DNA from: Owenia fusiformis
Lineage: Eukaryota; Annelida; Polychaeta; Sabellida; Oweniidae
Reading direction: 5' to 3'
DNA: 64,000 nucleotides
Assembly (NCBI GenBank): GCA_903813345.2
Contig: CAIIXF020000006.1
Span: forward strand, 31,786,024-31,850,023
The position numbers and the translations under genes were made by a program. Below the pieces are notes generated by a model. It was not told the DNA's origin, did not search any database, and saw only the letters and a list, made by a program, of their open reading frames with translations. This document shows positions 7,848 to 47,500 of this stretch, in pieces. Position 1 is the stretch's first letter; each line of letters begins with the position of its first letter.

Positions 7848-8466
7848 TCAAGTCTTTACACATGTCGGGAACGATCAAGTCTTTACAGGCGAACACTCAA
7901 GTCTACAGGCGAACAATCAAATCTCCAGGCCAACTATCAAGTCTTCACAGGCGAACACTCAAGTCTACAGGCAAACAATCAAATCTCGAGGCAAACTATC
8001 AAGTCTTCACAGGCGAACACTCAAGCCTACAGTCAAACAATCAAATCTCCAGGCCAACTATCAAGTCTTCACAGGCGAACACTCAAGTCTACAGGTAAAC
8101 AATCAAATCTCCAGGCAAACTATCAAGTCTTTACAGGCAAACAATCAAATCTCCAGGCAAACAATCAAATCTCCAGGCAAACTATCAAGTCTTTACAGGC
8201 GAACACTCAAGTCTACAGGCAAACAATCAAATCTCCAGGCAAACTATCAAGTCTTTACAGGCGAACACTCAAGTCTACAGGCAAACAATCAAATCTCCAG
8301 GCAAACTATCAAGTCTTTACAGGCGAACACTCAAGTCTACAGGTAAACAATCAAATCTCGAGGCAAACTATCAAGTCTTTACAGGCGAACACTCAAGTCT
8401 ACAGGTAAACAATCAAATCCCCAGGCAAACTATCAAATCTCCAGGCAAACTATCAAGTCTTTACAG
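7848..8466 (-). repeat. 62-bp minisatellite seeded on the CPSF3 stop-codon region
   Basis: About ten copies of a 62-bp unit, itself three ~20-bp subunits of the type TCAARTCTNNACAGGCRAAC. On the CPSF3 sense strand the unit contains CCTGTAAAGACTTGA, identical to the last codons of CPSF3 (P-V-K-T-stop). The copy nearest the gene is the genuine end of exon 15. The array probably lies in the 3' UTR. Confidence 0.9.
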
Positions 8467-44500: not shown

Positions 44501-47500
44501 TAGCTATACGTGAAACTGACACCATAAAACCAAACGGATTAGCATGCAAAATAAGCGCGGGAAATAACAGAATTATACACGGTCAACTAACCGCCCATAA
44601 AAACACAGACCAGTCAAGGCATTATCGGCGGTTAACCGGTTAACCGGTTAATACTTGACACCTCTACTATACACAGAGGATATGTAGGTATGTTCATTGA
44701 TTAAACACCATACACAGAGGATATGTAGGTATGTTCGTTGATTAACACCATACACCAGCGCTTGCATTAGATTAGAAATTTTGTGAGTCCCAAGGACGCA
44801 ATTGTTTTAAAAAGTGTGTCCTTTGAAAAAAAAGTGTGTCTCTTATTTTTCAGTTTTTGATTTCTTGCCGCGAATTTAGAACGGAAGTAAACGTTAAGTA
44901 CGGACTGAATAAATGCATGTTCATTCATTCGACAATGAATACATTTTATTTCATGAATAACCTAATATTTGTTTCTGAATAGGAAAAACTGTGGCATGTC
45001 ATGGTTTCAAATCTAAAAATAAACAAAGTCGAAAAAATTCGAGAGAATCATGATTATTTGTAAATATTCAACATGTTGAGCCTTATTTACGATTCAAATA
45101 AAGGTGAGAGATCATAATTATTTGTTTATGTTAGGTATCGTTGTAAACACATTGTAGTATTGACCTAAAGAAAATTTGCGTCCAAAAAACGGAAATATTT
45201 TCAATTTTTGCGTCCTCCAAATTAATTTCAAAATGGCGGCCATTTTTTGAAAAATATGTAATCTTTGATAACTCAAATACCAGTGAACGGATTTGGTTCA
45301 AATTTTATATGATGATGCTTAGGGACACAGTAGCTATGTTCGACAAACGATTTTCAAGATGGCCGCTTAATTTCAAAATGGCGGAAATTTTTCGTAAAAA
45401 ATGTAATCTTTGATAACTCAAATACCAGTGAACAGATTTGGTTGAAATTTTATATGATTATGCCTAGGGACACAGTAGCTCTGTTCAAGAAATAATTTTT
45501 TTCAAGATGGCGGCTGAATTTCAAGATGGCGGCTAATTTTCGTAAAAATCGTAATCTTTGATAACTCATATACCAGTGATCGGATTTGGTTCAAATTTCA
45601 TATGATGATGCCTAGTTCACAATCGTATAAACTTACTTTGTGCCAAATTTCATGCTTCTATCACAAAGTGCACAAACATTTCAACATTTACACTAGCTAT
45701 AATAAGCGTAATATGTTTTGTTCGGTGGGATTTGCTACTCCGTGGAGTTGCTGTTTTTCTAGTTACCATATTATCTCTAATAGGCACACATACTCCATTA
45801 AATGCGTAATACCTTACTTTTTCATGAAAGACTCTGTCAACTTGAGTAACAAAAATCGCAGTCAGTTCCCAAAATGGCAGACTGGAAAGATAGGAGAGAA
45901 TGTTTTATCATCGAAATGTGACACACGTGTCGATAAACCCACAAAAACACATTCAGCAGATAAATGCATGAGGAAAACATTGAGGTATGATACGGGATTT
46001 TGTCATTTGAGACATCTCCTTTAGGAGAATTTTGGAGATGCACTGTGCGTTTATTAGAGAGAATATGGTAACTCATTATGCTGTTATCAGTGCTGTTATT
46101 ATCCCAACGAACGAAGTTCGGTAGGGATATAGTGAAGCCCTCTGTCCGTCAGTCCGTCAGTCTGTCAGTCCGTCAGTCAGTCCGTCCATCCATCCGTCCG
46201 TCCGTCCATCCGGAAGATAACTCAATTATAAGTAGACGGATTTTCTTCATATTTGGTGGAAAGATGTATATTGATGAAAAGTTTTACGCAAAAAAAAAAT
46301 TTTTTCAAGATGGCCACCGCTTTAAAAATGACGGGACTTTTTTGCAAAAATCATAAATTTTTCATTCTAAACCAAAGTAATTAATATTATAGTTTGAAAT
46401 TTTGGTAGTATATTCGCAACATCTATCTATTTCACATATATTCTGTGTTTTTCATTCTGACCCCCAGGGGCCGTGTATGGGGGGTCAGGAAAACAGAAAT
46501 TTTCGCTAATTTTTAGATCTTTCTGAAGTATAGCTTTATTATACTCAAATAAAAGGCAATTAAGACACTGGGGGGTATCGTGATGCAACAACACCGTGTT
46601 GTTGCATCAAGATGGCCAGACTTCCGGTGATAGATTTTCGTACGATGTTTTGTTTTCCCAATTTACACCCATTTCTAGGACGAGTTGCTCAATAATCATA
46701 CACATGCAGTTAGCGCATGATCTATATTTTAAAAAACTGTCATTGGTATACATGTAGCATCATCAAGAAGCGATTAATTCGTGGTTTTAATTCCTCACTA
46801 TTGATGCAACAACACCACTCTGTTTCTTATCGATGATGCAACAACACCAATGTGCTGATGCAAAAACGCCAATATAATGTATCATTGAACAACAACAGAA
46901 ACTGTTTTATGTTCTGTTTACAGGTGTAGGTCGGGACAGGAATAAAACGCGTGAGTCAGTGGTCCATGAACGAAACGTATTTTGTTTGGTTTCTTTGTCT
47001 ATATCAAAGCTAAAAGGATATACAAGGCAAACTAAATAAAGTACAGAATCCCCGGGAGGCAATCTCATTCAATTCAATTCAATTCAATTTATTATTCAAT
47101 TCTAGTTTTCATACAATATAAATTTACAAGTGATATGAAAAGGACACCCCGTGGGGTGTATGGATTCCATGTTTTGAAAAAATATAATGTGTTATTAACA
47201 AAGCATGTAATGTTAGAACAGTTATTGTAGTGTACATAAATTACAAAGCATGGATCTACTTTTTTTTACCTTGATGTAACATAGTGGAAGTATGATTCAA
47301 AATAACTAATAACGACTTAACAAATTGAACTTAAACTTTCGTTGAAACATTTTAATATGAACTGAGTTTCTCAAATTAGAAGATAACATGTTATAAATTG
47401 ATGGGCCACTTGTCCCAATTGATTTCCTTCCATATTCTGTTCTAAATGGTTGAACAATCAAATCATTTTTTGATTTTGTGTCATGTGAGTGAATTGTTGA

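What the first reader, a model, noticed from the sequence alone, without database searches (positions are those of the whole stretch)
7848..44755. Minisatellites repeatedly seeded on exon edges of two neighbouring genes
Six separate tandem arrays (units 43-84 bp, one of 41 bp) begin exactly where a coding exon of CPSF3 or RIC8A meets intron or UTR, and their unit contains that junction: CPSF3 exons 15 (stop), 13, 10 and 3, and RIC8A exons 3 and 4. Coding exons make up only about 4.0 kb of 64 kb, so chance placement is implausible. Unit sequences are unrelated between arrays, so this is a recurring process and not one mobile repeat. Possible causes are slippage or repair linked to splice-site sequence or co-transcriptional structures, or a repeated duplication mechanism copying junctions. 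In every case the functional junction is the array's terminal copy. I know of no named phenomenon that fits, but I cannot search the literature.
Basis: partly seen in the sequence, partly recalled or inferred. Interest (0 to 1): 0.88.

Follow-up and report, generated by a model that had tools for sequence, protein, structure and literature searches.

The report
Exon-edge minisatellites in an annelid
In this worm genome many short repeat arrays are tandem copies of the very edge of a gene's exon, a pattern that I could otherwise find reported only from a few amphioxus genes; most of it needs no special mechanism, but it is found at exon edges somewhat more often than chance predicts.

Summary
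Six arrays in CPSF3 and RIC8A contain a coding-exon edge in their terminal copy (five splice junctions, one stop codon). The same recurs elsewhere in this genome: in 5 of 20 myosin, 5 of 8 chaperonin (CCT) and 3 of 9 kinesin stretches sampled. It has a name: "mirages", tandem repeats spanning exon/intron boundaries, reported in amphioxus (PMC3087553, PMC3902484). The host here looks like an annelid, probably Owenia fusiformis.

With each array collapsed to one unit and placed at random, held-out loci have 13 edge arrays among 65 where 5.7 are expected (P 0.0017); CCT and kinesin carry this (10 against 2.9), myosin does not (3 against 2.8). A plain overlap shuffle of all held-out loci is not significant. 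The excess is clearest in expanded arrays, but in held-out loci the fold excess is similar at all copy numbers, so birth and expansion cannot be separated. Unit ends fall at no fixed distance from the splice site, and one case is a stop codon, so a splice-targeted cut is unlikely. That the working junction is the terminal copy is forced by selection.

Best reading: ordinary local tandem duplication, tolerated where the extra copies fall on the non-coding side, with a modest unexplained excess at exon edges.

The parts
7870..8440 (-). 62-bp array (about 3 x 20-bp subunits, 9.2 copies) starting at the CPSF3 stop codon (TGA 8453-8455) and running into the 3'UTR side
   Evidence: stop context ...CCTGTAAAGACTTGATAG repeated in the units
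9754..9952 (-). 84-bp array (2 x 42) containing the CPSF3 exon 13 acceptor (first exon base 9782)
10276..10475 (-). 43-bp array in the same intron, derived from the same exon 13 acceptor (CCTTTCAG|TGG... units), separated from the previous block
13102..14526 (-). 43-bp array, 33 copies, containing the CPSF3 exon 10 acceptor (first exon base 13125); unit = 19 intronic + 24 exonic bases; GCTAAT stands at both founder ends
   Evidence: 32 of 32 decoy acceptors found keep AG
18698..20124 (-). complex array of basic period 63 containing the CPSF3 exon 3 acceptor (first exon base 18733); the copies read also carry a GTATGT or GTATGA donor-like site
38648..38927 (+). 84-bp array, first block, containing a RIC8A donor (exon ends 38664)
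38928..41447 (.). about 2.5 kb of other DNA that splits the 84-bp array; TTAA on both sides, the array continuing in register
   Evidence: read directly
41448..41865 (+). second block of the same 84-bp array
43147..44268 (+). 41-bp array, 27.7 copies, containing the next RIC8A donor found (exon ends 43162); unit = 16 exonic + 25 intronic bases
   Evidence: the 9 matches of a query over it lie in this locus
44669..44755 (+). second block of the 41-bp array after about 400 bp of other DNA

Best explanation
These are mirage-type minisatellites. A segment of roughly 20-260 bp that spans a coding/non-coding boundary is duplicated in tandem, by a generic short tandem duplication with little or no microhomology at its ends (inferred from 0-6 bp in the few cases where both founder ends are clean). 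Selection keeps only events in which the exon-side copy still joins the exon, so the further copies lie on the intron or UTR side and the working junction is the terminal copy (logically forced). Some arrays then expand to tens of copies by ordinary minisatellite turnover (inferred) and are later split by inserted DNA (read from the sequence). Splicing uses the exon-side copy although most decoys keep AG or GT (decoys shown; choice of copy inferred from the continuous exon, no RNA data). Edge arrays are two to three times more frequent than a uniform model predicts in held-out loci (shown on a sample, uneven between gene families); whether birth, expansion or retention is favoured at exon edges, and why, is not known.
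For: Six window arrays read base by base. Nineteen more in 37 loci sampled from the same genome: 13 at exons defined by homology and 6 recognised by eye; of the 26 listed (L049 included) 13 are acceptors, 12 donors, 1 a stop. Held-out test: 13 of 65 arrays against 5.66 expected, P 0.0017; CCT and kinesin 10 of 29 against 2.85, P 1e-4. By copy number, window included, dispersed units left out: fewer than 2.6 copies 3 of 30 (1.69 expected, P 0.23), 2.6-6 copies 7 of 25 (1.90), more than 6 copies 9 of 20 (1.78, P 6e-6). Exonic share of the unit broad: mean 0.47, KS p 0.18, n 26 (two values, RIC8A 38648 and L036 7616, set by reading). Small founder overlaps: 6, 0, 2 bp in CPSF3 exon 10, L011, L019, 3 bp by reading in RIC8A 43147. 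Non-edge arrays show no gradient with distance beyond 25 bp. Amphioxus precedent with the same anatomy.
Against: In the myosin sample there is no excess with homology-defined exons (3 of 36 against 2.80; 7 only if four exons found by eye are added). A circular-shift overlap test on all held-out loci is not significant (15 against 10.49, reached by 1643 of 20000 shifts; CCT and kinesin alone 10 against 4.43, 111 of 20000; myosin 5 against 6.05). In held-out loci the fold excess hardly rises with copy number (3 of 22 against 1.16, 5 of 20 against 1.70, 5 of 15 against 1.53), so a bias in birth is not excluded. In most of the 26 arrays the remainder at the founder ends is larger than 6 bp, which may be later truncation or may mean longer homology. 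No second haplotype or species was available.
Confidence: 0.65

Rival explanations
1. A process tied to exons or splice junctions (co-transcriptional structures, exon chromatin or gene-body methylation, splice-site sequence) raises the rate of duplication or expansion there.
For: Excess at edges in held-out loci; non-edge arrays do not rise towards exons beyond 25 bp (0.09-0.39 per kb), which speaks against a mere regional effect; fold excess present at all copy numbers.
Against: Broad spread of the junction's place within the unit; a stop-codon case; no excess in the myosin sample.
Confidence: 0.22
2. Pure chance plus selection: tandem arrays arise everywhere, exon edges are dense, and arrays inside exons are purged, so many edge arrays are expected with no bias at all.
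For: Expected counts are not small: 7.46 of 89 arrays, window included; circular-shift test over all held-out loci not significant; myosin fits chance (3 against 2.80).
Against: CCT and kinesin 10 of 29 against 2.85, P 1e-4; held-out P 0.0017.
Confidence: 0.15
3. A mobile element such as an introner or transposon inserts at exon edges and carries or creates the repeats.
For: Other DNA does lie inside some arrays.
Against: Units differ between arrays and are made of the local exon and intron; the RIC8A 41-bp query matched only its own locus; the inserts interrupt arrays instead of making them.
Confidence: 0.02
4. Assembly artefact.
For: Copy numbers of long arrays can be wrong in assemblies (general knowledge).
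Against: Copies differ by substitutions and by inserted DNA; the same anatomy occurs in many genes; a 611-bp piece of CPSF3 matched only itself.
Confidence: 0.02

Closest known systems
'Mirages' of amphioxus (Adh3, globins BflGb6 and BflGb9, troponin C, PGBD5)
   Same: Minisatellite-like tandem duplications spanning an exon/intron boundary, at the 5' or the 3' end of exons, authentic copy at the border, many copies keeping AG or GT, units of tens to about 160 bp (passages of PMC3087553, and PMC3902484).
   Different: Host looks like an annelid, not a cephalochordate; several arrays here have 20-35 copies (the amphioxus globin case has 3 and 6 units; copy numbers of Adh3 not seen); one array is at a stop codon; recurrence across genes of one genome is counted here. 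Splicing and haplotype variation were reported in amphioxus, not tested here.
Ordinary minisatellite (VNTR) birth by short tandem duplication and expansion
   Same: Local unit, tandem copies, near-identical internal copies in many arrays, small or no microhomology at clean founder ends.
   Different: An excess at exon edges is not part of the standard picture (general knowledge, not tested against a paper).
Intron gain by tandem duplication of AGGT-containing exon sequence (Rogers-type model)
   Same: Tandem copies carrying splice signals next to exons; PMC3087553 proposes mirages as raw material for new introns.
   Different: No new intron is seen here: the exon is continuous and the extra copies lie in an existing intron or UTR.

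Membership tests
mirage-type repeats (descriptive class) | tandem repeats whose unit spans an exon/intron boundary | tested here: met
   5 of the 6 window arrays (the sixth is a stop codon); 20 further arrays were listed because they show it
mirage-type repeats (descriptive class) | both 5' and 3' exon boundaries affected | tested here: met
   12 donors and 13 acceptors of 26 arrays
mirage-type repeats (descriptive class) | authentic copy at the cluster border, extra copies in the intron | tested here: met
   read
mirage-type repeats (descriptive class) | repeat copies often keep splice signals | tested here: met
   225 of 259 candidate decoys keep AG or GT; 18 of the 34 misses are in L049, where the script found about twice as many places as there are copies and probably mis-registered. 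In L037 (5.3 copies) 0 of 4 keep GT; in the first RIC8A 84-bp block the GT is kept but the exon context is changed
mirage-type repeats (descriptive class) | regular splicing not disturbed | not testable with these tools
   no RNA data
mirage-type repeats (descriptive class) | copy number varies between haplotypes | tested here: inconclusive
   a 611-bp piece of CPSF3 matched only itself in the assembly, so no second haplotype to compare
introner-type mobile introns | same element sequence in many genes | tested here: not met
   one unit searched genome-wide, RIC8A 41 bp, matched only its own locus; units differ between the arrays listed
intron gain by tandem duplication | a new intron splits a formerly continuous exon | tested here: not met
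   exon sequence continuous across the terminal copy in the arrays read

The most novel reading that the evidence does not exclude
In this annelid, tandem multiplication of exon edges is a pervasive, genome-wide process that arose independently of amphioxus or is an overlooked general trait of animal genomes, with a real molecular bias at exon edges, filling introns with large numbers of intact decoy splice sites that the spliceosome ignores and that could seed new exons and introns.
Probability: 0.35. Interest if true: 0.75.

Novelty: new member of a known kind. Interest (0 to 1): 0.5.

Why it matters
In what I could search, mirages were reported from single amphioxus genes. Finding them in what looks like a distant phylum, in many of the genes sampled, turns an oddity into something that can be counted and tested. 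Such arrays are natural experiments for splice-site choice (up to tens of intact decoys beside one working site) and possible raw material for new exons and introns. A genome-wide count split by copy number would separate two questions that are usually merged: where tandem duplications start and where they expand.

Tried and rejected
Plain circular-shift overlap of arrays and exons: not significant over all held-out loci (15 observed, 10.49 expected); it lets a long array cover half an exon and counts two arrays that only abut the exon, so I went over to a collapsed-unit null and report both. Adding exons recognised only because an array pointed to them inflates the test; those 6 are kept apart. 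GC content as the cause: edge arrays are somewhat richer in GC (0.378 against 0.327), but among non-edge arrays GC does not predict copy number (Spearman 0.03, p 0.82). Older sequence near exons: no gradient of non-edge arrays beyond 25 bp. 'Expansion, not birth, is favoured': suggested with the window in, but the held-out loci do not bear it out (fold excess 2.6, 2.9, 3.3 with rising copy number), so I withdrew it.

Host. Amphioxus: GFP family not found, but no control rang, so this proves little. Annelid haemoglobin linker family found, 3 matches, best E 5e-7 (its restriction to annelids is recalled). Muscle-type myosin: best PDB matches 1dfk, 1b7t and the like, then 3i5f, then Myosin-6/7 (that these are scallop, squid and vertebrate cardiac chains is recalled). 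Mollusc haemocyanin domain and mitochondrial COX1 not found; weak. The name Owenia fusiformis rests on size and chromosome number (505.8 Mb and 12 chromosome-scale scaffolds in PMC9977687; here 498.26 Mb, 11 of the contigs C1-C12 seen with lengths of 31.9-62.2 Mb) and is an inference. PF00501 and PF00122 searches gave single-exon or scattered matches and were not used.

Rows dropped before counts: further blocks of split arrays (4); exon segments that are copies inside arrays (one search list, also for L029); L049, fetched after its repeats were seen; loci L001-L010 and L031 are in no count.

Literature: I found no report outside cephalochordates in nine searches of an open-access library; longer lists were seen only in part (20 of 56, 15 of 34) and as titles and abstract starts.

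Full report
What is in the window. CPSF3 lies on the minus strand and RIC8A on the plus strand. They were recognised by peptides known from memory; of three pieces sent to Pfam, one matched Ric8 below the curated cut-off (E 1.8e-4), one matched a metallo-beta-lactamase domain over the cut-off, and one (exon 10) matched nothing. Tandem Repeats Finder and direct reading confirm the six arrays of the finding. In CPSF3 exon 10 the unit is 19 intronic plus 24 exonic bases and there are 33 copies; the motif GCTAAT stands at both ends of the founder segment. In RIC8A the donors at 38664/38665 and 43162/43163 each head an array (84 and 41 bp), and each array is split by other DNA, the first time with TTAA on both sides and the array continuing in register. 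The CPSF3 stop array starts at TGA (8453-8455) and runs into the 3'UTR, so it is not a splice junction.

Is it more than chance? The right null is a founder unit of length P placed at random; the probability of spanning an edge is edges x (P-8) / length of the sequence with arrays collapsed. In the window 6 of 28 arrays span an edge against 1.99 expected (P 0.009). The window was selected for these arrays, so I drew other loci from the same genome by Pfam exon matches: 20 myosin stretches (from the 92 matches), 8 CCT and 9 kinesin stretches (clusters among the 60 and 144 matches). Parts of 7 of the 20 myosin stretches (L011, L020, L022, L023, L024, L028, L030) had been scanned for repeats before I chose them, among them the L011 array. 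An eighteenth stretch, L049, was fetched after its repeated matches were seen and is left out of the tests. In the 37 stretches (238,830 bp) 13 of 65 arrays span the edge of an exon defined by homology, against 5.66 expected (P 0.0017); CCT and kinesin give 10 of 29 against 2.85 (P 1e-4), myosin 3 of 36 against 2.80 (no excess). Six more edge arrays sit at exons missing from the homology list and recognised by eye (4 myosin, 2 kinesin); with them the held-out count is 19. Stretches with at least one edge array, by-eye cases included: 5 of 20 myosin, 5 of 8 CCT, 3 of 9 kinesin. A cruder circular-shift overlap test is not significant over all held-out loci (15 against 10.49, 1643 of 20000 shifts; CCT and kinesin alone 111 of 20000; two of the 15 only abut the exon).

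Does the excess depend on copy number? With the window in and dispersed units left out, arrays of fewer than 2.6 copies show 3 of 30 edge arrays against 1.69 expected (P 0.23), 2.6-6 copies 7 of 25 against 1.90 (P 6e-4), more than 6 copies 9 of 20 against 1.78 (P 6e-6); by-eye cases add 1, 2 and 3. Without the window the classes give 3 of 22 against 1.16, 5 of 20 against 1.70 and 5 of 15 against 1.53 (P 0.10, 0.011, 0.0096), a fold excess of 2.6, 2.9 and 3.3. So the gradient comes mostly from the window, and the sample does not tell birth from expansion. Edge arrays do have more copies than the rest (Mann-Whitney P 0.002, window included). Non-edge arrays show no rise towards exons beyond 25 bp.

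Mechanism. The exonic share of the unit varies from 0.12 to 0.80 (26 arrays, mean 0.47, KS against uniform p 0.18). Two of these values, RIC8A 38648 and L036 7616, were set by reading because the script returned 0 and 1. A mechanism cutting at the splice site would not give this. Where both founder ends are readable the overlap is small: 6 bp in CPSF3 exon 10, 2 bp in L019, 0 in L011, 3 bp in RIC8A 43147. In most of the 26 arrays the remainder is larger, and truncation after the founding cannot be told from longer homology. The clean cases suit generic short tandem duplication. That the working junction is the terminal copy follows from the arrangement: only the exon-side junction restores the old mRNA. 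Internal copies mostly keep their signals: 225 of 259 candidate decoys have AG or GT, and 18 of the 34 misses are in L049, where the script probably mis-registered; L037 946-1200 has lost all four, and the first RIC8A 84-bp block keeps GT in a changed context. The spliceosome must then choose the exon-side copy; exon definition would explain this (general knowledge), but no RNA was examined. What causes the excess at edges is open.

Not a mobile repeat: a 261-bp query over the RIC8A 41-bp array has its 9 matches inside its own locus. Only this one unit was searched genome-wide.

Known names. [quoted passage not shown] PMC3902484 (passages) adds PGBD5 and cites troponin C. The earlier Adh and troponin C papers were not read. 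Nine searches of the open-access library showed no report outside cephalochordates among the listed papers.

Host. G000 has 498.26 Mb in 525 contigs; 11 of the contigs C1-C12 were seen with lengths of 31.9-62.2 Mb. The haemoglobin linker family, annelid by recall, is present; the muscle-type myosin is closest to chains that I recall as scallop and squid; the GFP family is not found (no control rang). Owenia fusiformis (505.8 Mb, 12 chromosome-scale scaffolds; passages of PMC9977687) fits; this is an inference.

Limits. Window exons were placed approximately by conserved peptides, with the first RIC8A exon(s) and one exon expected near 56.5-57.2 kb not located. The homology lists of exons in the sampled loci are incomplete. 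The sampled genes are large conserved families. No second haplotype, species or RNA was available.

Noticed in passing
G000:C9:37986009-37994334: Twelve tandem matches to about the same stretch of the myosin head (within positions 18-84) beside the muscle-type myosin heavy chain gene: probably alternative copies of one exon.
   Followed up: no
window 18698-20124: Copies of the CPSF3 exon 3 array read carry both an acceptor and a GTATG donor-like site about 34 bases apart, so each might act as a mini-exon.
   Followed up: no
window 51063-52242: Array of 28 bp x 42 copies in a RIC8A intron that is not at any exon edge found.
   Followed up: no
L024 7-997: 31-bp array upstream of a myosin exon whose unit shares TATGCCAATGAAAGCTT with the exon interior without containing the splice site.
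   Followed up: partly
L020 4015-4163 and L023 590-795: The same 19-bp unit (AAATAGGTGAGGCAAATGT) forms arrays in two unlinked loci, so some minisatellites are dispersed.
   Followed up: partly
window 11702-11947: A 115-bp near-duplicate ends about 25-35 bp upstream of a CPSF3 exon without containing the junction; similar abutting arrays are at L011 4933, L025 1282, L024 1324 and L036 6307.
   Followed up: partly
L049 346-3189: 159-bp unit x 18 in a kinesin gene, the copies holding a 38-residue piece of a motor-domain exon with its acceptor.
   Followed up: partly
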